The position numbers were made by a program, and so were the translations under genes. The notes under the pieces are model-generated. The model was given only the letters and a program-made list of their open reading frames with translations. It was not told the origin of the DNA and made no database searches. A stretch of 64,000 bases of DNA from Mytilus galloprovincialis (lineage: Eukaryota > Mollusca > Bivalvia > Mytilida > Mytilidae). Below, piece by piece: positions 793 to 44,727 of this stretch; position 1 is the stretch's first letter; each line of letters opens with the position of its first letter. The stretch lies in the NCBI RefSeq assembly GCF_965363235.1, contig NC_134844.1, forward strand, positions 88,188,664 through 88,252,663, given 5' to 3'.

Positions 793-1134
793 TTAATCTG
801 GTTTGTCATTAATCTTGTCATCAAATTCCATAGATTTTATCGATTGTAATTCAATAATGTCTTCGATGTTTTCCCGAACAATAGTATTTGCTTTTCTGTG
901 TAAATCAGCAGTTCTAACTGACAATCGCAGTTCGTTTTTAGATGATTTGTTTGCTCGGTTATCCTCTTCTTTTCTTTGATTTCTTTTTTTCTTAGCATTA
1001 TCCCCTACTTTTTGTGTTTTATTGTCTTTTCTGATTTCAACTTCCTCTCCATCCGCTTTAACACTCACATGCATCATGTTTGTGTCTTTCTTGAATCGTA
1101 TTGCATTCAATAAAGTTGTTACAACACAACATAT
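793..1134 (-). CDS. Gene A exon 20: helix 4 end, charged cytoplasmic tail, stop
   Basis: 342 bp, 113 codons and TAA. Opens ICCVVTTLLNAIRF (end of helix 4), then a very hydrophilic tail rich in Lys, Asp, Glu and Asn with a KKKRNQRKEED cluster, ending KINDKPD. Its start matches gene B (ISCIVMTLYDAVRL), but beyond the membrane the two tails are hardly alignable. Confidence 0.85.
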   Translation of the reverse strand: MCCVVTTLLNAIRFKKDTNMMHVSVKADGEEVEIRKDNKTQKVGDNAKKKRNQRKEEDNRANKSSKNELRLSVRTADLHRKANTIVRENIEDIIELQSIKSMEFDDKINDKPD

Positions 1135-4100: not shown

Positions 4101-7100
4101 GTACTTGCAATAGCAACACGATAGTTACCACTTGTTGACCACCTGAAATTACTCCCCGCTTTTTGGTAGGGTTCATGTGCTCAGTGTTTGGTGTTTTATG
4201 CTTTGTATCATAGACTGTTGTTTTGTCTTTTCGTCGTTTTTCGATTTTTGCCTTTGTATTGACAGATTTTCTTCAACTTTTGTGTTTGATTATCTCTATG
4301 ATGTCTTTTTTATGCATTATCATATGTGAAATTATGCGGAAGTGCAGCATAAAATAAGGGAAACACGTGAAAAACCTTTTTACAACATATTATGTAAGAA
4401 TAAAAGGAAACTGGAAGTAAACTTAAAAAACACTTTTTTACACATATTCATACTCACCACTACAAAAATGATCATAGCCATGAATACAATGAAGATTGTG
4501 TTGTATATTTCTAATCTTTCTTTAACTGCAACATCACATGACTAAAAGACATAGTTGGCAAACTTAATTTCTTGGACACACAATGGAGTCCTATATTTGT
4601 TGTACATATCAATGTTTTGTTTAAATCACATGTTTTAAAACAATAAAGCAATATTTTTTCTGCGATGAGTTTTTTACAAGCTGATTGCCGAACTAAATTA
4701 AGTACCAGGATTGGTATTTTTCATCACAATTTGTAAAACAGTGTGTCCAAAACCCATTTAAATAGACCGTTGAGCACAAATTAGTTAGTTTTACAATAAA
4801 ACATCTATTAATCCGTTTATAATCCGTTTAATGAAGAATAATTCATTATTATTTATGATGTCTTTCATGGAGACTTTATAGCTATTTGATCATTTCGTAT
4901 TTCGTAAAACATTACATTTATGAAAATATCAAATGCTATTTCTTATATAATGACATTTTGATTAGATTAATAAGAGCCTTGGAAAAGATATATCATGTTG
5001 ATAAAGCATACCCTAAAGTTAGAGATTTAAATAATTAACCTGTGAGCGATAGTAGCCGTCTAGCATAGAAGTTGTACAGTTGCTATCTGTTCTCGTAGAG
5101 TAAGGGAAGACATCAGTCTGAGATATACAACATTGTACTGGAATTCGTTGACCTGCTGATCTGTCACCATATACATACCAGTAGGTAGATTTAAATGACG
5201 ATTCTATCCTAGGTCCTACTCCACAACATTCTGCCTACATGAAAAGTTAACAGATGTTTTATTCAGAGTTTCCTCAAATTGATATCTACTTTTAAAAGTT
5301 GTCAGTGGTATATATATGCATATGATCCCACTGATCACTTAAACAAAATCATAAAGAGACAAACGACAGACTTCTGAAAAATTGCGATAACTTGTATTCA
5401 ATTTAACATTATATCAGCAGTTTTTCTAAGATTTTCAGATCATGCATATACTTTATCTATAATAATTAGCTGACTATTTTCCTTCTGATATTGTTTGTCC
5501 ATCTGTCAATTGAGATTTATTCACAACACTTAAAAAAACAGTCTTGGATAAGTTTTAAAGGTACTATATTAATACATGTATGTATCCGTAGTGTAGTAAT
5601 AATGTTTTAACTCTTTTCGTGTCATCATACCTGTACAAATAGTGTGTTCCACGAAAATGATAATGACAAATCATGTGTTGCTGATTTGTCAGAGTAATCA
5701 TAACCACCATTAGTACTATTGAACTGTTTCATAAGTTCATCTTCTAGCTCTGAAGATACCTGTAAGTTAAATCAATGTAGTGTACGTCCATATGAATAAA
5801 CGGATATGTGTATCAAAAGTAAGAGTGAGCAGGTAAGCGGGGAACCAACCCAACAAAACTATAAAGCAAAGCAATCTTAGCACACGGTATTCAATTATTT
5901 ACAACTGTTGGGTTAATATTCTTAATTCTTATCGCAATCATATCTAACATGTCTAAATATGATATTTATATTGCCAGACATTATCCTTCTGTATTAATAT
6001 GGGTTTTATACCTATTTTTTTTAAATACTAGTATGTCATAAAGATAGTTTGAGCAGAAACTACATGTCCTTTAACTATCTATTTTTATTCTTGTACATGT
6101 CTATAAATAAAAAAATCTATTTAATTTTTTATTCTTGTACGTGTTTATAAATAAAACAAATCTATTTTATTTCCATTCTTGTACGTGTCTTTAAATAAAA
6201 CAAATCTATTTTAGTTTCATTCTTGTACGTGTCTATAAATAAAGCAAATTTATTTTATTTTTAGAAATTCACCTGTAGTAATATAAACGTCACAAAAAGA
6301 CGTCCCATTTTGTGAAGTTGGTCCATTCATGTGACGCGCAGTTTATATTTCGTTTGTGGTGTCATGGTGTGGTGTCATGGGAAGTGTCCGGTGTTATTCT
6401 TTGGTTTACATGTTGTCATGTACTATTATATTATTACTATGATATCTGTGATGATTGTTCTTGCGTTTGCTTGTACTGTATTCCTGTCCGGTAGTGTTAT
6501 CATTTTATTAACGGTATTTTTAACATTGTTATATAAACAGAAGGTTTGGCTAGCCATACAACCAATTTCAACCCACCATTTTTTTCTTAAAAAGTCCTGT
6601 ACAAAGTCAGGAATATGGCATTTGTTATCAAACAGTCTGTTTCAATTTATATTGGTGTTTGCTTTTGTTGCAGTTCAGTGTACCTGTTGTTTTATTGTTT
6701 TCCTCCTATAGTTGATGTGTTTCCCTCGGTTTTAGTTTGTTACTCGGATTTGTTTTCGCTTTATCGAATTATGACTATTGAACAGCGGTATACTACTGTT
6801 GCCTTATTTGTAACATCTGACTATTTCAATTCAACTTAGGAAATACTAAACCGTCAATACAAACTCCTAGATACGTTATACATTGGATTAGCATCACGTC
6901 ACTTTGGCTCTTTTAATTAAATTACTTCCCTTAGCTGTAGATTGAAAAATAGAAAATTGCTGATCATCAAGTCTGTTTCCGTCTTTGATCTTAAACTAAC
7001 GTGTCTCTGAAAACTTCCTCAGGTGGATATTTACAAATATGCTATGTAGTGCAAAGGAAAAATGCGTAGAATTTGAGGGTTAAGAAAATGGAAAGGAATA

Positions 7101-10100
7101 AATTAGTTAAATTGAAAAGGCTGAAAGTTTTTAGTGTTGATAAGGTTCATTTGTACACGAACACAAGACAAAAATATGTACAATTTACCAATATGCGGAC
7201 AAAACGTTAATGTAATTACGAATTGGCATATTTGAATATTTACTTAAGGGGCATGCATATTCCTATTGAAATGGATGTCAACATAATACGACAATATGGC
7301 CGCTATGCAAATTAGTAAAGTACTCAACATGTTGCCATATATGGCCACTGTAATCATATCCTACTTTTTTCATACTAGACAATTATTTAAATGAAGTTAA
7401 TTCTTGTAAATACGTAGATTTATTTCCAATTATTTTACAAAATATGTACAGTGGTATCATTTATCAATTACTCTGAGTTAGTCATTTGTAAAATAAATGT
7501 TATACAATTTAACGGTCGAAACACTCCCACATGTTGTGACAAACTTGAAGTAACGAGAACACTTTTTGCAAAAATAAATCCATGAAATATATCATAGAGT
7601 ATCATACTTCTTTGAATTTTAGCATACAATATTGTGTATTGTTTTGCAAATTAAGTATAACGACTAGGAAATATTTAAAAACTGTTGGTGATACAACATG
7701 TACAATAACTATATTAGATTTTTATTTTAAAGCTCTAATTAGTTATTTATGGGGGGAAATGACCAACATCCGAATATCCATTTTACTTCAAAATCTAATA
7801 CAAATAACGAGTCACTTTTCATACAAACATAATTACCAACATTTTGTTTTATGTACTTTTGTATAGATTAATTCATCCTTAAAAGAGAGACTAAAGATTC
7901 AGGAAGGATATTCAAATTGCACTATAAAAGAATATTAATGAAAAGTATGAGTTTGCTTTTTTTCTAGAACATAAACCTTACGAATGTCTGTAAAACTGTT
8001 GTTCTCCGAATGTCATGCTATATTTTTAGGAACATTTACTTCAATATAATTTGACAAATTTAAACGACATCTTCGGAAAATTACACAATATATGCAAATG
8101 GAGAACTAAAGAAAAACATTTTATATTTATCCAATTTTTAGTTCTATGATCGTTTTGCAGAAAGTTTTTTCCACGATGCTATCAAACACAACAATTGGAG
8201 CAACAGAATAATTAACGTTTATATCTGTTTGACATTTATCTCCTCTTCATATTTTCTCATATTTCCCTTAATGAGTTTCCTTTTATTCGATGGATACTAG
8301 AATCAATTTAGGAAAATTTGTTTTATTTACACAGATCTTGATATCATTTTTTTTAATAACGTTATAAAACACGAAGCTAGTCAGACGAAAAGGCAAATGT
8401 GTGGTCACACCATAAAGTATAACGAATAAACATATTTTAACAAAGCTACAATCACTATACGAAGTATTATTACGAATAAACGAATTATGTATTTCTGGAA
8501 CTTACATTATTGAAAAAAATCACCCATAATCCTTCTTGAAGAAGATTTGCAACTGCCACGATACACAATACCCCAGCACTCTAGTAAAACAGAAAGTAGG
8601 CCAGTATTAATGTAAAATACTTTACTATTTGCTATTATTTGTGTGTTTTTCTGTCTTGTATGTTCTCCCATTTATTTGTATTGTAGTCCTGTCATGTAAT
8701 GTTGTCATGTAATGTTGTCATTTTAAAGTTATAATTAACATTGCTATAAAAGCGGTAGGTTTGGCCAGCCACAAAACCAGGTTCAACCCACCATTTTTTC
8801 TTTAAATGTCCTGTACCAAGTCAGGAAAATGACCATTGTTATATTATAGTTTGTTTCTTGTTTGTGTTGCATTTTAGTCATGTGTCGTTGTTCTTATCTT
8901 ATATATGATGTTTTTCCCTCAGTTTTAGTTTGTAACCCGGATTTGTTTTTTCCTCAATCGATTTATGAATTTCGAACAGCGATATACTTCTGTTGCCTAT
9001 ATCTAGTCACAACAATAACATTAACGATACCAATGTTTCTGCATCAGATGCATTTTCTGTGGAGCAGGATTTGATTACCCTTCCGGAGCACCTGAGATCA
9101 CCCCCAGTTTTTGGCGGGGTTCGTGTTACGTAGTCTTGAGATTTCTATGCTGTGTCTTATGTACTATTATTTCTTTTTTAGCCATGGCGTTGTCAGTTTA
9201 TTTTCGATTTATGAGTTTGACTGTCCCTTTGGTATCTTTCGCCCCTCTTTTCCACAAGAAATGTCTCTTCAGTGATGTTCAGGGCTTAAATATTTAAAAA
9301 TCCAAAACTTATTAAGAATTGAAGAGATGATAAAACCAAAAAGGATAAAAAGTGTAGCCAAAACCAGACATGGAATCAGCGGTATGCATACGAGAGATAT
9401 ACTCTCTTATTTTCTATCTTAATTTAAAGAAATTTCTAAAATTTTAAAACAACAAATTTTAATTACACAATACCGTGTAACCGTATTTGGCTTGTGATGC
9501 TCTCGAGGACTAACATACCACCAGCAGAGGTATCGACCCAGTGGTAGTAATAACATTAACGGTATCAATTTTACTGCACCAGATGCGCATTTTGACAATT
9601 TAAAGGGAGGCGAAATCTACCAATGGTACATTAAAACTTATAAGTAGACAAATAACTGACAACTCCATGGCACAAATAGAAAAAGATCAAAAGAAAACCA
9701 AGAGTAAACAAAACAATTCTCTTCAGTGATGGTTGAGGCCAAACAATTTGAAAATCCAAAACGTATTAGGAATTGAAGAGCTGATGAAAACCAAAAAGAA
9801 CAAAATTATAGCAAAAGCCGGCCAAGGAATCAGAGCTTTGCATGCGGAAGATACATTCATTAATTCTGCATTTTTATGCAAGTACCGAAGTACTGGCTCC
9901 TGGGCTGGAGATGCCATCGGGTATATCATAATAGGGTGTTTCGGGCCGGTTTTTTTTGTCTCACATCAATACAATCTCCTCGTTATTTGCCAAATCTAGT
10001 GATTGTGATAGAATGTGTTTGTGACATAATATGTTCAAGCAGCGGAATATTCTATAATTGACTTATTTCTTGAGGATTTGAGAGACAAAACTCAATTACT

Positions 10101-13100
10101 TGAACAGAGGGAACACAGCAAGACGGGTAAATTCACAGCATAATTTAGTCTTAAATGAAATTAATGCAGTTACATCTCCATTTAAATTAAATTGCTTTCA
10201 TGTTAATAAAAAACATCAATATGAAGAAGAAACATTATCGTACGACATCAATATAAATTCAATATATATATATGAAAATTACAGATATTATCTTAAATTT
10301 TCGATGCTCTAACAAATTTCATCAGCAATATAAAACTTTTTAAATAAACTCGTCATAGATAAGTTTAAATACAGCCTTTTCAGATATTTCTTTTCTACCA
10401 TAAAGTTACGCCAATCAAATGCTAAATGCACTGTTACGAAAACAGAGAGAAACCAAGACATTAAATTGCTGTATGACATTGAAAACAATTAGAACAAAAA
10501 TAGTACTTACGACAAAACTAAGAACTGATTTCCATTTCGGTAAGGCCATAACAATGAATGAAAATATAACAACTGCTATTGATAGAGACGAAAAAGTTAC
10601 AGTCACAATTGAAAACGTGTTGATAGCACTTGTGAAGGTATGATCAGCAATGTTTATTTTTGAAAATAATTCTTGTATATCAGAGTTTCCAAAAACTTTG
10701 TCAAATCGTATGTTGATGGCTAGACAAATCACCACAATGTTGAATATCTGTTAAATAAAACAATCAGTAATTCACAACCGTGTATAGTTATTTGCAATCA
10801 GTTCAGTACATACGCGTATATTCTTCAACAATCTTTTTGTGTAGGAATCAGACATATTCATTACTAATAGCATGATGTCTCTGACTTACAGAATATGTGT
10901 ATGACATTCATTTACCTGCATCTATGGTGTCGAAAAAATGAAACTAACTGAATATGCTGGTTTTAATTTGATTGACACCTTACAAATTTTGATGATATTC
11001 ATCTACTACTTATTAATCTCTGCAGTTGAGTTTGCTCTTTATCTTTGATCTTTTGTTCGTTCATTTAATTGTTAGTTAATAAATAAGTCGGTGTTTGTTG
11101 CGTAATATTGAACTTCTAAACACTAGGCCAATATAAGAATAAGTAGATGGGGTATGGTTACCAATGAGACACCATCCACCAGACGACCGAGTGTCACCGT
11201 ACGGTGTTTAACAATGAGCAAAATCGATACCGCATAATAAGCAATAGAATGCATCGAAATGTCAAATGGAAAACAAACGAAAAAAACTAACGAGATAAAT
11301 TATATACGAAACAACAAACAAGTATGTTGTAGAGCATACACGATAGCCACTGAATTACAGGCTTCTGACTTGGAACAGGCACATAAAGAATGTGGCTGGT
11401 TTAAACATGTTTGCAGGCGCCCATTCCTCCTCTAACATCATACAGTGATGTAACAGCACAACATAAGAGCAAACTTTAAAAATAAGTTGAAAAGGGCTTT
11501 ACTCACGAAAACTATACAAAGCAAAGACGACTTCTGGCGATGACGTGTATTTTAGTCAACTTCTTATACTGGTTTGTTGTATCAGCGAAATTTTGCATAT
11601 ATATCCTACCATATTCTACATAATATAGACTAAAGCGGTATGCAAAAATGTCAAAGAAAAACAATCAAATGACACTTACAAAAATATTCTATTATCTAGC
11701 ATCCAAGGATAAAATATATACTGTTTAATCACAAATAAACATCCAAGAGAAATAAAGTGAAGCAGTGATATTTTTGTCCTATAAAGTAAAGATATAATAG
11801 TAGAAAAATACATTTTTTACTTTTAAAATAAGACATGTAAGAGCACGATTTTTACTATATGCATGAGCGTGTTATACCATAACATACATACAAATAAAAT
11901 TGCTAGAAATTCTTAATATTTGGAGTTTTTATAAGCATAATTGTATTTTTCCTTATATGATTTATTGCATGTATTGTATATATATTATAGTGATTCTGAC
12001 ATTTCCTAATCGATTATTATGTTGTTTTCCATTATATTACTATTGAATGCTGACATCAAATGTTTTCACGTAGGAATAATGTGGTGGGTGTTTTATGTTA
12101 CAATATATGTTTGGTAATCATGTATCCTTTCAATAAAACATACCACGGACAAAACAAAGTCTAAGTTTAAGAACTTCCTTGACAGATCAAGAGTTATTTT
12201 GTTATAAATTTATAACACAAGGCTATAGTAAAAGTTTTCTAATGCTTTATTGTTGGCAGCCCGAGTTGTTTGAACTAGCAATGCTAAGGCGTGTCTCCTT
12301 AATAGCTAATCGATGCTCAATTCTTACGTTTTCACCTTTTCTTCGTTTTGTATTACCCCACATGTCTTATTTATGACCATTAATTCTCAAATTTTTCCAT
12401 GCAACCACTTTATTTCTATAAAAATGTTTAAACGACATCGCAAATAACCTATTGATAAAAAATCATTTTGATTCTTTTGTCACTTAGAATAAATTTTTCA
12501 CATAGCTCTACATAAGTTTTTCTAAAGATCTCACATTAAAAATCTTGTTTTTGTTGCTTTTTTATTTTTGTGTCTTTGGGTTTTTTCTTCTTTTTTTCTA
12601 TTTGTTTTTGGGGGAGTGGGTGGGGCTTGGTCAGTTAGTTTTTGAAGTCATAAGTCGAAAACAATATACAAAACACTGTTCAACTTTTATATTTGCTAAA
12701 CCAATGACAAAATTAGGCCAAAAATTAAAAAATGACATCACAAACAAAAAATTAATGTGATTCGGTTCTGTTAAGAAGTTCCCACATTTATAAACAAATT
12801 TGGTATGAAAAAAAACTAGGTGTATATTTTTCAAACATCCTCGGTTATGGTTAAATAATACGATATATGCCACATTTGTCATGTTTTAATTATATATTGC
12901 ACCATAAACCCATAATTAATATACGATACACTTGTTTATGTTGTTACCTCTTCCAGTTACTAACACAGAATGATTTTATTTCTTTAAACATCTTTCTGAA
13001 TATTACAGACTTAGCATTCAATGTTGCTCCTGTTGGGTTTTCAGCGCTTTCTGTCAACATTATAACGAGATATTCTTTGCTAACAAATACGAAACCAATA

Positions 13101-31100: not shown

Positions 31101-34100
31101 AACGGTCTAGTCATATAAAATCTTGTGTTTTGAATTTCAAGCAATTTGATTGTACAAGGACTTGATATATTTACTTAAGTTGGAAAAAAGAATGTCGCAT
31201 AAAATGATGATCATATTGCGGTCAATTTATAAACTTCAAAGAATTTGATCCCTTTCATTATGAGAACTGATAATGTCTGCAGGGAATGTGCCACCTTAAC
31301 CTATGTTTTGACACAGCTTTACTTTGACTTAGAAATATTTATTTACAAAAACACAAAAACCTGTAATTTTATTATTGATCTATTGATTTCTAATGTCTAC
31401 TGCTAACGACTTTATCTATGAACTTGATGAACCATTGTTATATATTTAGATATGTATATATATCTTATATGTGTAATTCAGTTACATTTATATGTTTATA
31501 CGGAATTGTACAAATGTACAAATGTACAAATGGTATTAAATATCGTTAACGTAAGACGTGTTTTTGTTCATGAGCTAGACCCAACCCAAAACTAAAGTTT
31601 AAAGACGAAGCCCATATCGTCACACCATGCATACATCTTTATTGTTTTCTAAATTAACATAGCTTTAGTTTTGACATGAAATAGAAACAAAAAAAATATG
31701 TGGAACACCCACTTGTACTAAACTCCATACGCCGATTTATGGTCAATATATTTTGTCAACTTATCATGCAAAAAGGTTGACATCTCAATATACATTGTTC
31801 TTACATGTACATGTACTAGAACCAGCAGCCACATTTCTATCATCTTTTCTTTCAGATGTCAATGGCCTTTTTAAATCGTCAATATAAAAAAGAAGATATG
31901 GTATGATTGCCAATGAGACAACTATCCACAAAAGACCAAAATGACACAGACATTAACATATATAGGTCACCGTACGGCCTTCAACAATGAGCAAAGCCCA
32001 TACCGCATAGTCAGCTATAAAAGGCCCCGATAAGACAATGCAAAACAATTCAAACGAGAAAACTAACGGCCTTATTTATGTAAAAAAATGAACGAAAAAC
32101 AAATATGTAACACATAAACAAACGACAACCACTGGCTCCTGACTTGGGACAGGCACATACATAAATAATGTGGCGGGGTTAAACATGTTAGCGGGATCCC
32201 AACCCTCCCCCTAACCTGGGACAGTGGTATAACAGTACAACATAAGAACGAACTATAAAAATCAGTTGAAAAAGGCTTAACTCATCAGATGGACAAAATT
32301 ATAAGTGGAATGTTTGTTTGATTGACATAGAAACTGGTTAGCTTCCAATTGAGGGACCACGCTGGGGTTTGTCAATGCTGCAATTGGTGGGGTTTGCTAC
32401 GTTTTTATATTAAACTCAAAATCTTGTAAATCTTTGTCACAAATTTGACTTATATGACTGCTATGATACCAGTGAGAATATTTACATTAAAAATAAACTA
32501 TCAATAGACCAATTAAAGACTCGCACTAAATTTCATAGTATATACCTTTTCATAGACTAACATTAACCTTAACTTTTATAATAACTGAATAACACATGTA
32601 CTGCACTGTGTAGCATGACATTTTATGTATAAAGGTTTAAACATTTTATTTAATGCTCAAATAAATGCTTGAATGTGTTTCCATACTTTCATACAGATTA
32701 ATGGACCAAAAATATAAACAATATAATAATGGAGTCATTATGAATTTAAAGATATGAAAAAAAAAATGGCAAAAATTGAGAATTGTGAAAAATTGCCGAA
32801 GGCTAAGAATGAACAAAACAAACAAATGAAGTTCCATTTACAATGTATACTCAATACCTAAAAATACACGCTGATCCCGCATGATTCTATTTTGAAAGAA
32901 GTCGAAAAACTTGTCACAAATGTAACACAAAAAAAAACTCTTTTAAAAGTTATATATACTATATAGTGTATCAAACATCTTTCAGTTTTATTTCTGTATC
33001 TTTACTGTTTACAAAACTTTTGAAATAATAAATCTTTTCTACCGCAGGAATAGATTACCTTAGCTGTATTTGACAAAACTTTTAGGAATTTTTGGTCTTC
33101 AATGCTCTTCAACTTCGTACTTTATTTGGCCTTTTCAACTTTTTTTTATTCCAGCGTCACTGATTAGTCTTTTGTAGACGAAACGCGCTTCCAGCGCAAA
33201 TACAAAATTTCAATCCTGGTACCTATGGCGAGTTTATTTACACTTTAAAAGGGAGTAGCCTTTCCCGCAAATTTGTTTATTTTATCAAAACACATGCTTT
33301 ATATTGTTTTAAACGACGTTACAGGTCAAGTTTGGGACATGCCTGTTTAGTATTTAATTATCTATTTGTACAATTCAAAATGATTTTGTGAATTCATATT
33401 TTGGGGAAAATAAGGCCTTAAACTTGTTAAAACCTATCCCGAATAGAAACAACAATATCTCACCTTTTTTAGAAAGTTTGGGAAGGTTTTTTCCCAGTAC
33501 GTGTATGATATGTAGTGTTTGATATAAGGAGTAGTGGCTTGGTACGCTAATGTGTAATTAGATAATGTGTCGTTGAGGTGAGTTTTCTGTAAAATAAAAA
33601 GACCTAATTTGTATTATAATTCAAAACAAAATGAATGCATCAACCATTCTATTCAGTTCTCTGTAAATATACTTGATCACCGGATCTAGAGAAATGTACC
33701 AATTTTATTTCCAAAAAGAAACTAACTTAATTTACATTTATTTTGGACAAGCATTTTGCAATCGATCAGATTTGAAAATACAATGAACAGAACAGCAGTT
33801 TCTATCTCAATAATTACAAACTAACGTCGGAAAAACGATATATAAAAATATATACGTTTTGCGAACGTACAAGTGCTGAATTCGAAATGAGTTCAAAAAA
33901 GGTGTTTCCAGGAAAAACGTAATGAAATCAAATTAAAATTATTTTCTAAAATACCCGATTTGTTATCAAATTATCATTCTTATTCTGTGTTTATGTCCTC
34001 CCTTTAAAATTTGTAACTTACCTTGTCGTATATGATAGAAAGATTCACTATATTTATCAAGTAGACCACTATCATAAAGGAACTCATCAAGACGTTCTGC

Positions 34101-37100
34101 AATAAATAAACAAATTGTTATATATACAATCCTATCCATTTGATGTTTGCACCTAATTTCTTAGAGGATTTTGTAATCATATGGACATTAATTCCCACAG
34201 AAGGTACATTTATTCTAAATTGAGTTGTTCATTCAAAACTTAGATAATAATTAATGTTAAGTATATAAGTTTATAGTATCTTATTTGTTTGATTAATATA
34301 AATACTTGGCGTTTTTGAATTATATATGATCATCGACACTTTCTAGCATTTTTATAGTTTATGAGCTCTTGTTGGCAATAGCTGCATGAGATAGCGATTG
34401 TATTCAATGTAAAATGTTGATTTATTTATCAGTTAAAATCTTCAGCTTTTGTCGGCCAAAAACATTTATACCATATATTCGGCATTTGTGCTATCAATAT
34501 GTTGTAAGAATGTTAAAAATAGAGTTAACTAGGTTTGAAATAGAAGCGTTTTTTATATAAATTGCTACATCTTATCTTACAAAAAACGTACAAAACCATC
34601 ACTTTTTAATTTTGCATGGATTGGAAATCTTCATATTTTGTAATTCAAATCTTGAGGTCATTGTAAAATCTAAACATATCATACATTTTTATAATTATGA
34701 TCTTAATTCCATCTTATTCATACATAGTTTTTATGTAAAGTTATACATAAGGTAAATCATTGGATAATGTAATAAGCAGGATACCAGTTGTACTTACAAC
34801 GGCCAGTATTTGCTTTTTCCTTCCAATAGCTCCCCATATTCCAAAAATACCAGAAACCAGCTCTAAGACAAATACTCCAATAAAAGAAAATACAACAGAT
34901 TTAACGGTTGTTCCTAATGGCATCCCAGCTAGTATCTCAATGTCGATAATTTTGATGACGTCTTCGTTTAAAATGTCGTTGTTAACCTTCATTAATATCA
35001 ACATCATTATGAAACCAAAGGTAAATGTCTGTAATAAAGAAATTCCAATTTTTTTCTTTGAGTCGTGTAAACTTTCCCCCCTTCATCATTCTCTCTTACA
35101 CCACACACCATTCCCCTTTTTCACTATAAACTATTCCCCATTGCACCATACACATTTTAATCATACCTGATAGTGCACCTTTAGAACACGTACACCTTTC
35201 CCTAACACACGATATACCATTCCCTATTTTATCATTAGTCATTTCCTACTGCACAATACACAATAAGTTCCTCATTATCCTATTACAATCAATCTGAAAC
35301 GGTCATTTATATCTGAACAGATCTTAAAAGACTTAACAATAAATGGGAAGCAACTGTGTTTATCGTCTTGCCGACTTGTTCCTTTATTCATATGAGGGTA
35401 ATTTCATTTATATACCTATATGGAGTTATTTTCTTTCAGAACGACAGGTCATTCTTTTTCAGAATCAACCCGGACGATGTTTCAATGAAATATGCTCAAA
35501 AGCATACAATAAAAAAATTTATTCGTCTGATAGTTTTTTTCTGCCGATTTGGAAATTTATATTTTAAAGTTCAATCGTTAAAAGATGTAAAAGAAACCTT
35601 CATTGCCCGCATTTTAATTTTAGAAACAAATAACGTAAAGTTTTGTTAATTTATCGCTACAATAAAGAAACATTATCATATATATATGTGAGATGAATTT
35701 TAATATAGAATTTCATAAATAAAAAGCCAGATTTAACATATTCGTGTGTTAGATTTTGAAAATCTTATTGAGTCACACTGAATAGGTTGGTTGATTTCTG
35801 GTTGCTTGCTTAACGTCCAGTGGCAAATATTTCATGCATGTTCAGGACGATAAACGCTGAATAGGAAATCATACTGTTACCTACATGTATTTATATTCGT
35901 CTTTGTGTCAGTTCTTAACTTTTTTAAATTTATGTATACCTTTTACTCTATCAAATGATCAACTAATAAGATAAATTAATCTTATATACTATTGAATAAT
36001 ATTAACGTAACTCAGAAAAGGGTCGGGTGCGGAGGATATATAATTATATCTTGATTATTTGTAAATAAAATGTAGTGCTATTCAAAAGATAATCTTTCTG
36101 AATTTTTCGTTCGATTCAATTAAAATGGTTAAAAAAATAACCACTTTTCCGCGATAGAAATGACATTACAAATAGAATACATACCCCTCGCCCTTTTCCA
36201 TAAGCTAAGTGGTACAATAAAATTACTTACAATGTGTCTTGTATTTGTCATACACTGTTATCGGATGGTAACAATACATTTGTGTCTTACTTCATGTAGT
36301 TACAGTAATATTTTTATTGTGTATGGATAATATTTTTTGAAAGGTTTATATCTAGATTAATTAGTGAGTTTTATTTCACATTCTAAATGAGCCGTAGGGC
36401 GTATTAAAACCTGAACGTATTAGAAAGGAATATCCCACTTTAGTGTTGTCGGTAAAATAGGATACTAAATTTGGCAAATTTTTATAACAAATAATATTTT
36501 TTTGACGGTATATAAGTCAGATAATGCATATTTTAAGGATTTTCTTGTCGTAGAACACACCTCGGGGTGTCAGGATTGCTCAAAGAAAGACCTCCCTCCG
36601 GTCGGTCTTTCATTTGATCAATACTGACACCCCTCGGTGTGTTCTACGACATGAAAAACCTTAAAATATGCATTATCTATAACATATATGCTTCTTAGGA
36701 AGAATAAAAAAGTTAATTAATTATACGCATCTACCAAATTGAACTTGAAGGAAACAATAGATGGATTTTTCGGTCTCATATCTTAATTTTTATCTAGAAA
36801 TTGATATTGAGGATCGGTTGAGATCAAAACTTTACGAAAAAAGTTATGATTTCAGCTTTCTAAGATCACCTTGGTATCTGTCTACTCTCTAGTTAAATAA
36901 TTTTCCGTCGTTCAGTCAATAATGAGATTTATCCACTGCGGTAAATACAATAGTGATCAGACAATTCGCTTGCACTTACCTAAGATCTGTTCAGTCTATA
37001 ATCATATTGTTCAGTACTTGTTATTTACTTGTTCATTTCAATAGCATACTAAATTACCTCATCAACCAAATTTTGTACAACAATTGTTCGAATTGAAACA

Positions 37101-40100: not shown

Positions 40101-40196
40101 ACAAAATATATATGTATAACTTACCCTGGTTATTAAGGATGCTGTCAAAATAATATTTGCTGAAATAGTCAAACGACCTCGATTTATTTTCACCAT
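793..40196 (-). CDS. Gene A: complete 20-exon gene for a triple-tetraspanin fusion membrane protein
   Basis: Reading right to left, 20 exons splice with consistent phase: 40125-40196, 34798-35028, 34022-34096, 33464-33586, 27939-28055, 26666-26820, 25235-25280, 24614-24844, 24138-24212, 22112-22216, 21568-21732, 15096-15179, 12948-13102, 11733-11778, 10511-10747, 8506-8580, 5631-5759, 5040-5234, 4458-4541, 793-1134. This gives about 913 codons. Three four-helix modules follow one another: module 1 exons 1-6, module 2 exons 7-13, module 3 exons 14-20. Modules 2 and 3 carry the CCG and CC motifs of a tetraspanin large extracellular loop. Ordinary tetraspanins have one such module in about 200-300 residues. 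The expected topology has N-terminus, linkers and C-terminus in the cytoplasm. The start ATG has an in-frame TGA two codons upstream and A at -3, G at +4. All donors are GT except exon 11 (GC). The role is unknown; tetraspanins usually organise membrane partners. Exon joins are inferred, without transcript data. Confidence 0.82.
2835..3000 (+). repeat. Dispersed repeat family R1, copy 1
   Basis: R1 is recognised by cttccggagcacctgagatc, a gttcgtgttgtt middle and an end like tttatgagtttgactgtccc. This copy starts acccttccggagcacctgat. Confidence 0.65.
3195..3590 (-). repeat. Dispersed repeat family R3, copy 1
   Basis: R3 is recognised by ccaatgagacaactctccat, caccgtacggccttcaacaa and ggcggggttaaacatgttag. 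Read on the minus strand these are all present in diverged form here. Confidence 0.65.
4130..4320 (+). repeat. Dispersed repeat family R1, copy 2
   Basis: accacctgaaattactcccc and tagggttcatgtgctcagtg; diverged. Confidence 0.6.
4458..4541 (-). CDS. Gene A exon 19: loop end and helix 4 of module 3
   Basis: 84 bp, 28 codons, phase 0/0. SCDVAVKERLEIYNTIF followed by a hydrophobic run. SCD supplies the last loop cysteine. Gene B 45998-46081 shares CD-A, RL-x-Y. Donor GTG/gtgagt. Confidence 0.85.
5040..5234 (-). CDS. Gene A exon 18: CCG part of module 3 large loop
   Basis: 195 bp, 65 codons, phase 0/0. AECCGVG at the start, IPVQCCISQT in the middle, NCTTS (a Cys and a possible N-glycosylation site) and YYRSQ at the end. 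Shares AECCGVG, PVQCC.SQT and FPY with gene B 46762-46962. Longer than the module 2 equivalent. Confidence 0.88.
5631..5759 (-). CDS. Gene A exon 17: first part of module 3 large loop
   Basis: 129 bp, 43 codons, phase 0/0. Begins VSSELEDELM, has one possible N-glycosylation site (NST), and ends LSFSWNTLFVQ; gene B 47713-47838 begins VDSSLTERL and ends LGWNTLFAK. No cysteines. Confidence 0.84.
6087..6262 (+). repeat. 44-bp minisatellite, four copies
   Basis: attcttgtac starts units at 6087, 6131, 6175 and 6219, each followed by gtgtctataaataaa and a T-rich end. Intron 16 of gene A. Confidence 0.85.
6330..6810 (+). repeat. Dispersed repeat family R2, copy 2
   Basis: Long copy with the front part (gtttggctagccatacaacc, gtcctgtacaaagtcaggaa) and the R2 end. 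The 126-codon open stretch here is not preserved in other copies. Confidence 0.75.
6811..8505. other. Intron 16 of gene A, right part: nothing recognised
   Basis: AT-rich. The 94-codon open stretch at 7582-7866 has no recognisable motif, no splice context and no paralogue in gene B. Confidence 0.5.
8506..8580 (-). CDS. Gene A exon 16: helix 3 of module 3
   Basis: 75 bp, 25 codons, phase 0/0: SAGVLCIVAVANLLQEGLW and a short end. Gene B 49796-49870 shares SAG, VxVANxxQxGLW. Acceptor actag, donor AAT/gtaagt. Confidence 0.85.
8640..9005 (+). repeat. Dispersed repeat family R2, copy 3
   Basis: Same front (aggtttggccagccacaaaa) and R2 end, close to exon 16 of gene A. Confidence 0.75.
9073..9255 (+). 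repeat. Dispersed repeat family R1, copy 3
   Basis: The most complete copy: acccttccggagcacctgag through gtatctttcgcccctctttt. Confidence 0.7.
9250..9600 (+). repeat. Dispersed repeat family R5, copy 1
   Basis: R5 is recognised by ccaaaacgtattaggaattg, aaagccggccaaggaatcag and accagatgcgcattt. Here aatccaaaacttattaagaa, gccaaaaccagacatggaat and caccagatgcgcattttgac. Confidence 0.6.
9718..9955 (+). repeat. Dispersed repeat family R5, copy 2
   Basis: aatccaaaacgtattaggaa, gcaaaagccggccaaggaat, gaagtactggctcctgggct. The 88-codon open stretch here belongs to the repeat. Confidence 0.65.
10511..10747 (-). CDS. Gene A exon 15: helix 1 end, small loop, helix 2 of module 3
   Basis: 237 bp, 79 codons, phase 0/0, exactly the length of gene B 52794-53030, with about 41 of 79 residues identical (shared AINIR, VFGNSDI, IADHTF, TFSSLSI). 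Two codons longer than the equivalent exon of modules 1 and 2. Helix 2 ends in PKWKS. Confidence 0.87.
11131..11500 (+). repeat. Dispersed repeat family R3, copy 2
   Basis: Has ccaatgagacaccatccacc, caccgtacggtgtttaacaa and gaacaggcacataaagaatg. Lies in intron 14 of gene A. Confidence 0.7.
11733..11778 (-). CDS. Gene A exon 14: first half of helix 1, module 3
   Basis: 46 bp: one base plus 15 codons (TKISLLHFISLGCLF). Acceptor ctttatag, donor TTT/gtgatt, which is the weakest donor in gene A. Chosen because only this stretch between exons 13 and 15 has the right length, phase and a hydrophobic reading matching gene B 53765-53810 (SRITLVYLISLVILV). Confidence 0.72.
12948..13102 (-). CDS. Gene A exon 13: helix 4 end and linker from module 2 to 3
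   Basis: 155 bp, phase 0 in, two bases out. Starts IIGFVFVSKEY (end of helix 4), then about 40 polar residues, ending IKSFCVSNWK+R. Gene B 54461-54612 is three bases shorter but shares the KEY and IKSF..NW.R marks. No stop, and phase fits exon 14. Confidence 0.82.
13103..14919. other. Intron 12 of gene A: no repeat or gene recognised
   Basis: AT-rich with the C11 tract. The 75-codon open stretch at 13708-13935 has no paralogue or motif. Confidence 0.5.
14133..14143 (+). repeat. C11 homopolymer
   Basis: Eleven C in a row in an otherwise AT-rich intron (intron 12 of gene A). The length may be unreliable in sequencing. Confidence 0.85.
14920..15060 (+). repeat. Dispersed repeat family R3, variant fragment
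   Basis: gagtgccaatgagacaactc, gtaaggtcttcaacacggag and ctataaagggcccc; ends about 35 bp from exon 12 of gene A. Confidence 0.65.
15096..15179 (-). CDS. Gene A exon 12: loop end and helix 4 of module 2
   Basis: 84 bp, 28 codons, phase 0/0. TCADVILFKTKM, then helix 4 (GWFLAIVLLQIVLE). 21 of 28 residues match gene B 54962-55045. It is cut off from exon 11 by a 6.4-kb intron containing two nested transposons, and a dispersed repeat ends about 35 bp from its donor. Confidence 0.85.
16405..18690 (+). repeat. Left tandem array of the 194-bp unit, about 12 copies
   Basis: Period 194-195 bp, measured from the repeated catttcatttag (16572, 16766, 16961, 17155 and on). Copies are about 90-98% alike by eye. 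Two copies (near 17350 and 18515) share a variant with aggttatttt, suggesting a multi-copy duplication. Confidence 0.9.
19140..20470 (-). repeat. Right tandem array of the 194-bp unit, about 7 copies, inverted
   Basis: Same unit on the other strand (gattcagtaagc at about 19600, 19794, 19988, 20184, 20378). Fewer copies than the left arm, so the palindrome is unequal. Copies near the centre are more diverged. Confidence 0.88.
21568..21732 (-). CDS. Gene A exon 11: CCG part of module 2 large loop
   Basis: 165 bp, 55 codons, phase 0/0. Begins LQCCGVN (the tetraspanin CCG), then IFCCKNAH, then FGGC near the end; with TCADV in the next exon this gives the six-cysteine pattern. Two possible N-glycosylation sites (NHS, NET). 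The donor is a GC type (GAG/gcaagt), the only one in either gene. An inverted-repeat transposon ends about 20 bp downstream of the donor. Confidence 0.88.
22112..22216 (-). CDS. Gene A exon 10: first part of module 2 large loop
   Basis: 105 bp, 35 codons, phase 0/0, same length as gene B 56615-56719. Shared motifs GMKFQL, LQQ and the C-terminal W-N-x-MIMT. No cysteines. Confidence 0.85.
22423..22572 (+). repeat. 30-bp minisatellite, five copies
   Basis: Period exactly 30 bp (taatagtcaaccccatctaa...), five units almost identical (one c to t change in the last). Intron 9 of gene A. Confidence 0.92.
22838..22990 (+). repeat. Dispersed repeat family R6, copy 1
   Basis: R6 is recognised by aatggcaaaatcaaaagctc and cacatcaaac...caactgtcatattcc. 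Marks present: aatggaaaaatcaaaagctc, acaactgtcatattccatat. Confidence 0.6.
23144..23270. repeat. 127-bp hairpin element
   Basis: Arms share atatggctttttcaatatc and ccaatataatc; the centre includes gagctctgctc. Intron 9 of gene A, 50 bp from the CRE repeat cluster. Confidence 0.75.
23313..23396. promoter_or_regulatory. Three tandem 28-bp repeats each with a perfect CRE (TGACGTCA)
   Basis: TGACGTCA occurs at 23321, 23349 and 23377, within repeats tacatgacgtcatacagatt. A degenerate fourth (tgacgtgacgtct) is near 23430. TGACGTCA is the consensus site of CREB/ATF factors. The block is in intron 9 of gene A; enhancer activity is not shown. Confidence 0.5.
23945..24015 (+). repeat. Dispersed repeat family R1, end fragment
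   Basis: ccatggcgtagtcagtgtat and tatgagtttgattgtcc only; about 120 bp from exon 9 of gene A. Confidence 0.6.
24138..24212 (-). CDS. Gene A exon 9: helix 3 of module 2
   Basis: 75 bp, 25 codons, phase 0/0: STALSLVLHVPRILAV then a hydrophobic end. Shares SSVLH/LVLH, VPRI/IPRI with gene B 57353-57427. Acceptor tttcag, donor AAG/gtatgc. Confidence 0.85.
24614..24844 (-). CDS. Gene A exon 8: helix 1 end, small loop, helix 2 of module 2
   Basis: 231 bp, 77 codons, phase 0/0. Begins TAGVGLLGLGLTLLLDEF (end of helix 1). The small loop has NNSS (possible N-glycosylation) and FHNYYFYD. Helix 2 ends LGLVGSWKKSPILLVT. Very close to gene B 57887-58117, which shares GLLGLGLTL, FHNYYFYDILVGLAA and GSWxKS. 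Confidence 0.88.
25235..25280 (-). CDS. Gene A exon 7: first half of helix 1, module 2
   Basis: 46 bp: one base completing the Arg of NWNR, then 15 codons (SKVVVASVLFKIGSL). Acceptor ttgcag, donor CTT/gtgagt. Length and phase are identical to the other three internal helix 1 exons. It contains no Met, so module 2 cannot begin translation here. Confidence 0.8.
25385..25530 (+). repeat. Dispersed repeat family R7, copy 1
   Basis: gcgagattttctcgctgtgt, gaagacccattggtggcctt, ttgttgtctctttgacatat. About 100 bp from exon 7 of gene A. Confidence 0.65.
25808..26204. mobile_element. TTAA-flanked MITE, about 397 bp
   Basis: Ends GAGGGTGTCC and (reverse strand) GAGGCTGTCC, each flanked by TTAA (25804-25807, 26205-26208). 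TTAA duplication is typical of piggyBac-type elements; no coding region. Similarity continues inward (ccaggc / tcaggc). Lies in intron 6 of gene A. Confidence 0.55.
26210..26281. repeat. Short inverted repeat next to the TTAA MITE
   Basis: atagtatgcta is repeated in inverted form at both ends, with ccatat/atatgg inside and an 18-20 bp loop. Could be a hairpin MITE. Confidence 0.45.
26666..26820 (-). CDS. Gene A exon 6: helix 4 end and linker from module 1 to 2
   Basis: 155 bp, entering in phase 0 and leaving after two bases of a codon. It finishes helix 4 (IVTIVAAEY), then gives a basic cytoplasmic linker (FRKLDYKEKKP) of about 45 residues ending ENWN+R. Same length and strong similarity to gene B 61545-61699. 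There is no stop, and the phase matches the following 46-bp exon, which is the key evidence that the modules are fused. Confidence 0.8.
26891..26970. repeat. 80-bp loopless palindrome
   Basis: Two 40-bp arms meet with no loop (centre gtaaat/atttac near 26930); the inner 24 bp of each arm match perfectly, and the outer part has few mismatches. Intron 5 of gene A. Confidence 0.85.
27580..27735 (+). repeat. Dispersed repeat family R1, diverged copy
   Basis: gttcgtgttgtttagtcttt and tcatgagtttg...ggtatgtttcgcctc are recognisable. Confidence 0.5.
27939..28055 (-). CDS. Gene A exon 5: reduced module 1 loop and start of helix 4
   Basis: 117 bp, 39 codons, phase 0/0. It begins LGCQN, has a second Cys ten residues on (YHC), then enters helix 4 (LEIYIGISMTCIVCQ). 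Where modules 2 and 3 have CCG there is only LGC, so this loop has two cysteines rather than six. Gene B 62759-62878 has the same layout (LGCEQ...YYC...SIVCQ). The CIVC pair near the membrane could be acylated, as in other tetraspanins. Confidence 0.8.
28056..29875. other. Intron 4 of gene A, left part: nothing recognised except one R3 fragment
   Basis: AT-rich with no splice-compatible reading related to the tetraspanin exons. No CCG-type exon was found anywhere between exons 4 and 5. Confidence 0.5.
28655..28760 (+). repeat. Dispersed repeat family R3, short fragment
   Basis: ataggtcatcgtacggcatt and caacgacaag are the only clear marks. Confidence 0.45.
29876..30044 (+). CDS. Possible first exon of a CD225/dispanin-type gene, antisense in intron 4 of gene A
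   Basis: Opens with ATG in good context (acaaaATGG) after an in-frame upstream TAA. It encodes 56 codons and ends at a consensus donor (TCCT/gtaagt). The C-terminal part reads RPPNFFILAIVITVLNPLL, then GPKAILFS, resembling the first membrane segment of CD225 (IFITM/dispanin) proteins, where a P-x-G-x-x-A-x-x-x-S stretch is typical and an intron follows nearby. No second exon with the other CD225 segment was found downstream, so it may be a stray fragment or pseudogene. Confidence 0.4.
30915..31100 (+). repeat. Dispersed repeat family R3, variant
   Basis: gagtgccaatgagacaactc, aagtacggccttcaacgcga and ggctcacaccgaacagcaag; same subtype as the copy at 14.9 kb. Confidence 0.65.
31887..32290 (+). 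repeat. Dispersed repeat family R3, best-preserved copy
   Basis: Full layout from gatatggtatgattgccaat through accgtacggccttcaacaat, gtggcggggttaaacatgtt and gttgaaaaaggctta. About 400 bp, no coding capacity. Confidence 0.75.
32291..33059. other. Intron 4 of gene A, right end: nothing recognised
   Basis: AT-rich, no open reading frame with a family signature. Confidence 0.45.
33060..33240 (+). repeat. Dispersed repeat family R4, copy 1
   Basis: R4 is recognised by cttcaacttcgtactttatt, cgtcactgattagtcttttg, tagacgaaacgcgc and tcctggtacctatg. Clear in this copy. Confidence 0.7.
33464..33586 (-). CDS. Gene A exon 4: first part of module 1 large loop
   Basis: 123 bp, 41 codons, phase 0/0. Soluble, aromatic-rich segment with two possible N-glycosylation sites (NDT, NYT) and no cysteine. 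It aligns with gene B 63774-63884: both share a TL.xYTxAY core and end FPxFLxK. Confidence 0.78.
34022..34096 (-). CDS. Gene A exon 3: helix 3 of module 1
   Basis: 75 bp, 25 codons, phase 0/0, identical in length to every other helix 3 exon in both genes. It encodes one hydrophobic segment (LMSSFMIVVYLINIV). Acceptor ttgcag/AAC, donor AAG/gtaag. Confidence 0.8.
34798..35028 (-). CDS. Gene A exon 2: helix 1 end, small loop, helix 2 of module 1
   Basis: 231 bp, 77 codons, phase 0/0, the same length as the helix 1-2 exon of module 2 in both genes. It opens with the second half of helix 1 (TFTFGFIMMLILM), then a polar small extracellular loop, then helix 2 ending FGIWGAIGRKKQILAV. The GxWGAxGRKxxxL stretch corresponds to the GCCGAxRExxxLL motif after helix 2 of tetraspanins. 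Confidence 0.82.
35343..35470 (+). mobile_element. Decayed reverse-transcriptase remnant, intron 1 of gene A
   Basis: The plus strand reads MGSNCVYRLADLFLYSYEG, clearly related to the MGPNCAPLLADLFLFSYES stretch at 42.9 kb. Only this short part is recognisable; it is an old fragment. Confidence 0.55.
36521..36676. repeat. 156-bp hairpin element
   Basis: Arms of about 75 bp: ataatgcatattttaagg and gtcgtagaacacacc on the left recur inverted on the right. GC-richer centre (cctccctccggtcgg). Intron 1 of gene A. Confidence 0.8.
37283..37425 (+). repeat. Dispersed repeat family R4, copy 2
   Basis: gaagctcttcaactacgttc, gactaaacgagcgtctggcg and tcctggaatctataatgagt. Confidence 0.65.
38185..38290 (+). 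repeat. Dispersed repeat family R7, copy 2
   Basis: ctcgctgcgttgaagaccca and gttgttgtctctttaacata; near-identical core to copy 1. A minus-strand end fragment (gaatatgtcaaagagacaac) is at about 2460-2512. Confidence 0.65.
39745..40095 (+). repeat. Dispersed repeat family R5, copy 3
   Basis: accagatgcgcatttcgaca, gatgctcgaggccaaaatat, gaagtactggctactgggat. Ends about 30 bp from the donor of gene A exon 1. Confidence 0.65.
40125..40196 (-). CDS. Gene A exon 1: start codon and first half of helix 1, module 1
   Basis: 72 bp, 24 codons, phase 0 at its end. The peptide starts MVKINRGR and continues as a hydrophobic stretch (ISANIILTASLI), like the short basic N-terminus and first half of helix 1 in tetraspanins. 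An in-frame TGA two codons upstream fixes the start. The donor reads AGG/gtaagtt. An AT-rich TATA-like stretch lies about 140 bp upstream (near 40340), but a promoter cannot be shown. Confidence 0.75.
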
Positions 40197-41314: not shown

Positions 41315-41605
41315 AAAACTCCGAGGAAAATTCAAAAAGGAAAGTCCCCAATCAAATGGCAAAATCAAAAGTTCAAACGAATGGATAACAACTGTCATAT
41401 TCCTGACTTGGTACAGGCATTTTTTATGTAGACAATGGTGGATTGAACCTGGTTTTATAGCTAGCTAAACCTCTCACTTGTATGACAGTCGCATCAAATT
41501 CCATTATATTGTCAACGATGCGTGAACAAAACAAACATACACAATAGGTAAAAATGTCAAAAATAGGGGTACAGCAGTCAACATTGTGTTATCATCTTAA
41601 TTAAT
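41315..41605 (+). repeat. Dispersed repeat family R6, copy 2
   Basis: The longest copy: gaaagtccccaatcaaatgg, acaactgtcatattcctgac, ggtggattgaacctggtttt, taggggtacagcagtcaaca. Lies directly downstream of the retroelement block. Confidence 0.65.
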
Positions 41606-41706
41606 CACTATAAAAACAAACAATTGTAACGAAGAAGCACAAAAAGGTATACATCAAATTTAACATCCTCATTTTCCTTATATTATACGATTTTATTTAT
41701 CTATGT

Positions 41707-42312: not shown

Positions 42313-42371
42313 CAAATAAAAGAATACTATAAAACGTTATTAAGATGATAAACAACGTCAGTACGCAAAGT

Positions 42372-44130: not shown

Positions 44131-44727
44131 CTATAAGTCATCTTCAACTAGATCTTTGGCATCAACATCTGCTATTAATTTGTCTTTCAATTCGGTTCTA
44201 TCTGAAGCTGTTTCTTCATTGATTTGTATACTGGTGTCTTTCATTGTTTTATCTTCTTTTTCTTGATGCATGTTTTCTGTTTCATCGTTTTTATGTTGAT
44301 CTATTGAGTCTGTTTCCTCTTTTTTGTCATCGTTGGTGTTTTCTGTTTTATTCAAATGTTTTGAATCAATCATTTCCTCAGTATTCGTTCTCGTTCTTTC
44401 ATTTTCTTTTTTTGTCTCTTCCAATGACTGTATTTCAATATTGTCTTTAACTTTCTCTGTTTCATCTGTATTTTGCTTAACGAATGATTTCTGTTTTTCA
44501 ATTGATTGCTTCCGCTCACTTTTTGCAGCTTTTCTGGAATTTTCTTTTTCTTTCTTCTTTTTCTTATCTTTTTTATCAGAAACGGTGTTTGTAGGTTTTG
44601 ATGAGGGTTTTTCATCTACTTCTAACAATTCTACTTTTCCTTCATTCGCTTTGTTTTCTAGATGCATAGTATTTGGTTCAGATGGTAGGCGAACAGCGTC
44701 ATATAATGTCATCACTATACACGAAAT
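44131..44727 (-). CDS. Gene B last exon: helix 4 end, long charged tail, stop
   Basis: 597 bp, 198 codons and TAG. ISCIVMTLYDAVRLP completes helix 4. The remaining tail of about 180 residues is nearly free of hydrophobic residues, with a KKDKKKKKEKE cluster, repeated Lys/Glu/Asn/Thr stretches and an acidic end (DLVEDDL). It looks disordered or coiled. It is about 85 codons longer than the gene A tail. Confidence 0.85.
   Translation of the reverse strand: MSCIVMTLYDAVRLPSEPNTMHLENKANEGKVELLEVDEKPSSKPTNTVSDKKDKKKKKEKENSRKAAKSERKQSIEKQKSFVKQNTDETEKVKDNIEIQSLEETKKENERTRTNTEEMIDSKHLNKTENTNDDKKEETDSIDQHKNDETENMHQEKEDKTMKDTSIQINEETASDRTELKDKLIADVDAKDLVEDDL

What the first reader, a model, noticed from the sequence alone, without database searches (positions are those of the whole stretch)
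793..40196. One gene encoding three tetraspanin modules in a row
Exon phases, lengths and the absence of internal stops or usable start codons join three four-helix tetraspanin-like modules into one predicted chain of about 913 residues. Three of the four internal helix 1 exons have no Met, and each linker exon ends in exactly the phase the next 46-bp exon needs. Tetraspanins are known as single-module proteins that assemble with each other in the membrane; a covalent trimer would fix stoichiometry and order. I know of no described family like this, but I could not search.
Basis: partly seen in the sequence, partly recalled or inferred. Interest (0 to 1): 0.92.

Follow-up and report, generated by a model that had tools for sequence, protein, structure and literature searches.

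The report
Triple tetraspanin gene, present twice
Two neighbouring animal genes each appear to encode three tetraspanin membrane modules in a single chain, whereas tetraspanins are normally separate one-module proteins; RNA evidence is still needed.

Summary
A tandem paralogue, gene B (63884..44131, its 5' end outside the window), has the same exon order and phases in its 17 visible exons. Matching modules are 49-56% identical, synonymous sites are near saturation, and pN/pS is 0.43 overall, 0.37 in linkers and 0.40 in the 46-nt joint exons. All four joints use matching phase-2 splice sites, and linkers 1 and 2 resemble each other beyond shuffles. Module 2 is a clear tetraspanin. Module 3 is divergent but has CCG and six loop cysteines. 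Module 1 is reduced, without CCG or Pfam hit, and is tied to the family by exon layout.

Best reading: one fused three-module, 12-helix tetraspanin gene, duplicated and kept under selection. Against it: no RNA data, one weak joint donor, in-frame ATGs upstream of both joint exons in A, and possible private start exons in three of four joint introns. Eight library searches showed no described fused tetraspanin. It is a new variant of a known family.

The parts
40125..40196 (-). Gene A exon 1 (module 1, start Met, first half of helix 1), 72 nt, phase 0 out
   Evidence: in-frame stop two codons upstream, donor AGG|gtaagt; no B counterpart in the window
34798..35028 (-). Gene A exon 2 (module 1, helix 1 end, small loop, helix 2), 231 nt
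   Evidence: only open phase-0 180-300 nt AG..GT candidate with both site scores >=0 in 33587-42500; no B counterpart in the window
34022..34096 (-). Gene A exon 3 (module 1, helix 3), 75 nt
   Evidence: best of three 69-84 nt candidates; same 75 nt as modules 2 and 3; no B counterpart in the window
33464..33586 (-). Gene A exon 4 (module 1, large loop first part), 123 nt
   Evidence: matched by B 63884-63774
27939..28055 (-). Gene A exon 5 (module 1, remnant of cysteine region plus helix 4), 117 nt, no CCG
26666..26820 (-). Gene A exon 6 (linker 1), 155 nt, phase 2 out
   Evidence: 67% aa identity to B, pN/pS 0.26
25235..25280 (-). Gene A exon 7 (46-nt joint exon, start of module 2 helix 1)
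24614..24844 (-). Gene A exon 8 (module 2, helix 1 end, small loop, helix 2), 231 nt
24138..24212 (-). Gene A exon 9 (module 2, helix 3), 75 nt
22112..22216 (-). Gene A exon 10 (module 2, large loop first part), 105 nt
21568..21732 (-). Gene A exon 11 (module 2, CCG and cysteine region), 165 nt, GC donor
15096..15179 (-). Gene A exon 12 (module 2, helix 4), 84 nt
12948..13102 (-). Gene A exon 13 (linker 2), 155 nt, phase 2 out
11733..11778 (-). Gene A exon 14 (46-nt joint exon, start of module 3 helix 1); weak donor TTT|gtgatt
10511..10747 (-). Gene A exon 15 (module 3, helix 1 end, small loop, helix 2), 237 nt
8506..8580 (-). Gene A exon 16 (module 3, helix 3), 75 nt
5631..5759 (-). Gene A exon 17 (module 3, large loop first part), 129 nt
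5040..5234 (-). Gene A exon 18 (module 3, CCG and cysteine region), 195 nt
4458..4541 (-). Gene A exon 19 (module 3, helix 4), 84 nt
793..1134 (-). Gene A exon 20 (end of helix 4, charged C-terminal tail, stop), 342 nt
63774..63884 (-). Gene B, module 1 large loop exon, 111 nt (first B exon visible)
62759..62878 (-). Gene B, module 1 helix 4 exon, 120 nt, no CCG
61545..61699 (-). Gene B linker 1, 155 nt, phase 2 out
60075..60120 (-). Gene B 46-nt joint exon, module 2
57887..58117 (-). Gene B module 2 helix 1/2 exon, 231 nt
57353..57427 (-). Gene B module 2 helix 3 exon, 75 nt
56615..56719 (-). Gene B module 2 large loop first part, 105 nt
55784..55954 (-). Gene B module 2 CCG exon, 171 nt
54962..55045 (-). 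Gene B module 2 helix 4 exon, 84 nt
54461..54612 (-). Gene B linker 2, 152 nt, phase 2 out
53765..53810 (-). Gene B 46-nt joint exon, module 3
52794..53030 (-). Gene B module 3 helix 1/2 exon, 237 nt
49796..49870 (-). Gene B module 3 helix 3 exon, 75 nt
47713..47838 (-). Gene B module 3 large loop first part, 126 nt
46762..46962 (-). Gene B module 3 CCG exon, 201 nt
45998..46081 (-). Gene B module 3 helix 4 exon, 84 nt
44131..44727 (-). Gene B last exon (end of helix 4, long charged tail, stop), 597 nt

Best explanation
The region is one minus-strand gene (A) that encodes three tetraspanin modules in one 12-helix chain, with a diverged tandem copy (B) of the same design upstream of it. Shown from sequence: exon order, phases, open frame, conservation between A and B, similarity of linker 1 to linker 2, and tetraspanin identity of module 2. 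Inferred: the exons are spliced into one message, both ends and both linkers lie in the cytosol, and the three large loops face outside. The reduced loop of module 1 would hold at most one disulfide; modules 2 and 3 have full six-cysteine loops. The most likely function (inferred, about 0.35) is a preassembled tetraspanin scaffold: module 1 anchors or spaces, and loops 2 and 3 hold partners side by side at a fixed ratio. Origin (inferred): a phase-2 intron joined one module's tail exon to the next module's first exon. Because the linkers resemble each other, the joined unit itself was probably copied to give the third module before the whole gene duplicated. The confidence given is for one gene encoding one three-module chain.
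For: The exon model has no internal stop and 17 of 19 introns in phase 0; the joints are the only phase-2 introns, in A and in the visible part of B. A/B pN/pS is 0.43 overall [0.38-0.48], linkers 0.37 [0.28-0.51], 46-nt exons 0.40 [0.21-0.67]. Linker 1 versus linker 2 with their 46-nt exons gives shuffle Z 3.1-4.6 in 4 of 4 A/B combinations. The joint codon is Arg at all four joints, split AG|G or AG|A between the exons. Joint candidates are improbable by chance. PF00335 scores 51.9 bits on A and 81.7 on B, two stretches each. The five-row module profile finds UPK1B at 1.6e-7 and CD53 at 9.8e-5 in the PDB. The twelve expected helices are found in A.
Against: No RNA or protein evidence. The donor of joint exon 11778..11733 is weak (-2.7 bits). 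In-frame ATGs lie upstream of both 46-nt exons in A, and three of four joint gaps hold an ATG frame ending at a phase-2 donor of 4 bits or more. Module 1 has no Pfam hit and no significant profile match to modules 2 or 3. Module 3 alone gives no PF00335 hit and no PDB match. A exons 1-3 have no B counterpart in the window. Hydropathy shows a thirteenth weak peak in A (residues 48-66, 1.45).
Confidence: 0.8

Rival explanations
1. Six ordinary, separate tetraspanin genes in a head-to-tail cluster (three in A, three in B), each with its own promoter and stop.
For: Tandem tetraspanin clusters are known in animals (recalled). Read without splicing, 3 of 4 linkers meet a stop right after NWxR, and A has in-frame ATGs upstream of both joint exons. 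The two gaps of A and the first gap of B hold an ATG frame ending at a phase-2 donor that could serve as a private first exon (only Met-Lys in B's first gap; none in B's second), and AATAAA/ATTAAA motifs occur in all four gaps.
Against: The stop after a phase-2 donor is expected: by my count from the donors listed, 13 of 24 non-linker donors would read the same way. The upstream ATGs are absent in B. Splice sites of matching phase sit at both sides of all four joints, and the joint exons taken together are under constraint.
Confidence: 0.12
2. Mixed output: one fused gene that also makes shorter one- or two-module proteins through intronic polyadenylation after a linker or through starts in the joint introns. 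This is compatible with the best explanation, so the odds overlap.
For: Stops follow directly after the linker donor in 3 of 4 cases, and poly(A)-like motifs are present in all four gaps.
Against: Such motifs are expected in AT-rich introns, and nothing but short matches is shared between the A and B gaps.
Confidence: 0.2
3. Decaying pseudogene or assembly artefact.
For: One GC donor and one weak donor in A.
Against: The pN/pS interval lies below 1 in 15 of 17 shared exons; the other two are short, with upper bounds 1.14 and 1.24. Two diverged copies carry the same layout.
Confidence: 0.02

Closest known systems
CD63-like animal tetraspanins (Garcia-Espana et al. 2009, PMC2650405)
   Same: Modules 2 and 3: four helices, small and large loop, six phase-0 introns, CC-CC-C-C cysteine pattern with CCG.
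   Different: Those are single-module proteins of 200-300 residues. Here three modules are joined by phase-2 introns, and module 1 lacks the intron before helix 4 and four of the six cysteines.
Uroplakins UPK1A/UPK1B and peripherin-2/ROM1
   Same: Tetraspanins that build defined complexes (PRPH2/ROM1 hetero-oligomers: abstract of PMC10665016 seen in the listing; uroplakin plaques recalled). The five-row module profile's best PDB hit is UPK1B.
   Different: They assemble from separate chains.
Tandem tetraspanin gene clusters, for example Drosophila 42E (recalled)
   Same: Head-to-tail copies on one strand.
   Different: Each gene there has its own start and stop (recalled); here the linkers are conserved coding exons with splice sites in phase.

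Membership tests
Tetraspanin (PF00335), module 2 | Profile match above the curated cut-off (32.1 bits) | tested here: met
   A 37.8 bits, B 64.4 bits
Tetraspanin (PF00335), module 3 | Profile match above the curated cut-off | tested here: not met
   Module 3 alone gives no reported hit in A or B. The full chains score 14 (A) and 17 (B) bits more than module 2 alone, with a second stretch; modules 2+3 of A also give two stretches, the best covering all of module 2. Module 3 matches module 2 by hhalign at E 6e-12.
Tetraspanin (PF00335), module 1 | Profile match above the curated cut-off | tested here: not met
   No hit; hhalign to modules 2 and 3 E 0.07 and 0.24
Tetraspanin | Four transmembrane helices per module with small and large outer loop | tested here: met
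   Hydropathy only: 12 helices in A at the expected places plus one weak extra peak; 9 in the visible part of B
Tetraspanin, CD63-like | CCG motif and CC-CC-C-C large loop | tested here: inconclusive
   Met in modules 2 and 3 of A and B; not met in module 1, which has two loop cysteines; pattern from PMC2650405 section 6
Tetraspanin, CD63-like | Six phase-0 introns | tested here: met
   All six in modules 2 and 3, five in module 1 of A. Assignment to the paper's numbers 1-6 is inferred from location; its figures were not seen.
Tetraspanin | Single-module protein of 200-300 residues | tested here: not met
   Predicted 913-residue chain with three modules; size from PMC2650405 section 3
Tetraspanin | Lateral assembly into tetraspanin-enriched membrane domains | not testable with these tools
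   Needs protein work

The most novel reading that the evidence does not exclude
An old animal gene family in which tetraspanins are made as an obligate covalent trimer, with one module reduced to a minimal loop and two keeping full loops, so that ratio and order in the membrane are fixed by the gene.
Probability: 0.65. Interest if true: 0.72.

Novelty: new variant of a known kind. Interest (0 to 1): 0.62.

Why it matters
Tetraspanins are described as small single-module proteins that assemble loosely with each other and with partners. A natural covalent trimer kept in two diverged genes would show that fixed order and ratio can be selected for, and would be a ready-made test object for how tetraspanins contact one another. 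It also shows how a multi-module membrane protein can arise: only the joints carry introns outside phase 0.

Tried and rejected
Plus-strand reading: the 70 best plus-strand frame pairs below 42 kb (region 16-21 kb left out) looked like interspersed repeats, with nothing tetraspanin-like. The gene is on the minus strand.

A missing CCG exon in module 1 was sought in both genes and not found. The A/B alignment of the shared part shows module 1 running on without it.

A whole-genome search was not possible, because no genome is held for this window. Scans of viral contigs and of prokaryote genomes with the module 2 alignment gave no relative; neither collection is expected to hold animal genes.

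PDB search with module 3 alone gave nothing at E up to 10; with module 1 only one weak hit, PsaK at 0.36; with module 2 alone CD53 at 7e-4 and UPK1B at 1.

Start exons shared by A and B inside the joint gaps: none found, though single candidates exist in three gaps.

First exon versus the 46-nt exons: no significant similarity.

Sequence similarity of module 1 exons to modules 2 and 3 is mixed: helix 1/2 exon A1 versus A2 has Z 3.7, others 1.1-2.2; helix 3 exon -0.8 to 1.1; helix 4 exon 1.5-3.7.

Full report
What is there. Six-frame self-comparison of the window shows that the signal lies on the minus strand and that there are two copies of it. Splice models were built from AG/GT boundaries, open frames and A/B similarity. 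Gene B lies upstream on the same strand, 63884..44131, with 17 exons visible and 871 residues; its first exons are expected beyond the window end. All introns are GT-AG except one GC-AG in A. In A 17 of 19 introns are phase 0, in B 14 of 16 visible ones; in each gene the two exceptions are phase 2 and are exactly the joints between modules. Ten of the 17 shared exons have the same length in A and B, six differ by 3-12 nt, and the last exon differs more (342 and 597 nt).

Module anatomy. Each module is a joint or first exon, a helix 1/2 exon (231, 231 and 237 nt in A), a 75-nt helix 3 exon, a loop exon, a CCG exon (modules 2 and 3 only), a helix 4 exon (84 nt in modules 2 and 3) and a linker or last exon. 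In module 1 no CCG exon was found in either gene. Its helix 4 exon is 117 or 120 nt, that is 84 nt plus a short remnant with one cysteine. Hydropathy gives the expected twelve helices in A with one weak extra peak in the small loop of module 1, and nine in the visible part of B. The linker loops hold 9-14 Lys/Arg, as expected on the cytosolic side.

Is it more than chance? Splice-site matrices were trained on 28 exons that did not include the 46-nt exons. The rest of the window gave five AG-46-GT open candidates of at least the same score (one on the sense strand outside the exons, four on the other strand), which means 0.025-0.056 expected per joint gap; each of the four gaps holds one. The A/B pairs match at 9 of 15 and 6 of 15 residues; none of 10,000 shuffles reached either score, and 0.08% and 0.11% of 6216 pairs of unrelated open 46-mers did. 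Of 41 A-side/B-side minus-strand frame pairs with E up to 1e-3, 17 are exon-exon, and these cover 15 of the 17 shared exons in register; the 46-nt exons are too short for that test. The other 24 overlap no exon on either side; I read them as interspersed repeats because the same stretches recur in several pairs (region 16-21 kb left out).

Selection. Over 778 aligned codons A and B are 50% identical in protein with pS 0.71 and pN 0.31, ratio 0.43 [0.38-0.48]. Linkers give 0.37 [0.28-0.51], joint exons 0.40 [0.21-0.67]; linker 1 (0.26, 67% identity) is among the best conserved exons, linker 2 less so (0.48, 39%). Two short exons, the module 3 joint and module 3 helix 4, have intervals that cross 1. 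Synonymous change is close to saturation, so the duplication is old and the layout has been kept since.

One gene or several? Three points favour fusion. All four joints have a donor and an acceptor in matching phase 2, and the codon built across the joint is Arg each time. Linker 1 and linker 2, with their joint exons, are similar beyond shuffles (Z 3.1-4.6; 0, 0, 0 and 4 of 1000 shuffles reach the score), which suggests that a joined unit was copied. Against it: in A an in-frame ATG precedes both joint exons (absent in B), an ATG frame ending at a phase-2 donor exists in three of four gaps (only Met-Lys in B's first), poly(A)-like motifs are present in all four, and the donor of A's second joint exon is weak. 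The stop met directly after the linker donor in 3 of 4 cases carries little weight, since a phase-2 donor beginning GTAA, GTGA or GTAG always reads so; by my count, 13 of 24 non-linker donors have that form. No RNA evidence was available.

Family. PF00335 matches the full chains (51.9 bits A, 81.7 bits B, two stretches each) and module 2 alone (37.8 and 64.4). Module 3 alone gives no reported hit and no PDB match, but it has CCG and six loop cysteines, matches module 2 by hhalign (E 6e-12), and must hold the second stretch in the two-module construct, where the best stretch already covers module 2. Module 1 matches nothing significantly as a whole; its link to the family rests on exon lengths and phases. 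A profile of five modules finds UPK1B (1.6e-7), CD53 (9.8e-5), a chain named Tetraspanin in the same entry as UPK1B (4.6e-4) and tetraspanin-7 (0.024) in the PDB; with module 2 alone only CD53 (7e-4) and UPK1B (1) appear. Garcia-Espana et al. 2009 (PMC2650405; outline with abstract, passages, sections 3 and 6) state that the six ancestral introns are all phase 0, that CD63-like members have the loop pattern CC-CC-C-C, and that tetraspanins are 200-300 residues long. Modules 2 and 3 fit the first two statements, and the chain as a whole breaks the third. That 75-nt and 84-nt exons are typical of tetraspanin genes is recalled, not looked up.

Novelty. Eight searches of the open-access library (search listings with starts of abstracts, some capped, for instance 25 of 279 papers) showed no described multi-module tetraspanin. 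Beyond listings, only PMC2650405 and three passages of PMC3970140 were seen; the latter's hit for 'tandem tetraspanin' was unrelated. Subscription papers and protein databases were not searched, and predicted proteins with two tetraspanin domains may exist in databases (recalled, untested).

Mechanism. Shown: a conserved coding layout in two genes. Inferred: a single 12-helix chain with cytosolic ends and linkers and three outer loops, the first minimal and the other two full. I think it most likely acts as a preassembled scaffold that fixes ratio and order of two partner-binding loops (about 0.35 for that function; 0.8 for one gene and one chain). The role of the charged C-terminal tail (108 residues in A, 193 in B after the last helix) is open.

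Noticed in passing
44131-63884: A second, diverged tandem copy of the same three-module gene (gene B), outside the coordinates of the finding; its 5' exons are expected beyond the window.
   Followed up: yes
16032-20895: Foldback-like element in an intron of gene A: outer arms 98% complementary (16032-16272 and 20655-20895), inner arms made of 194-bp tandem arrays in opposite orientation.
   Followed up: partly
42372-42968: Minus-strand 198-residue frame between genes A and B that looks like a reverse transcriptase fragment (recalled resemblance to Penelope-like elements); Pfam gave no hit at E up to 0.01.
   Followed up: partly
41707-42308: Tandem repeat with periods of about 105 and 325 bp just beside that frame.
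   Followed up: no
8638-9006 and 58329-58920, 31788-32075 and 50421-50656, among others: Short stretches shared between non-exon parts of the two genes, not in gene order, read as interspersed repeats.
   Followed up: no
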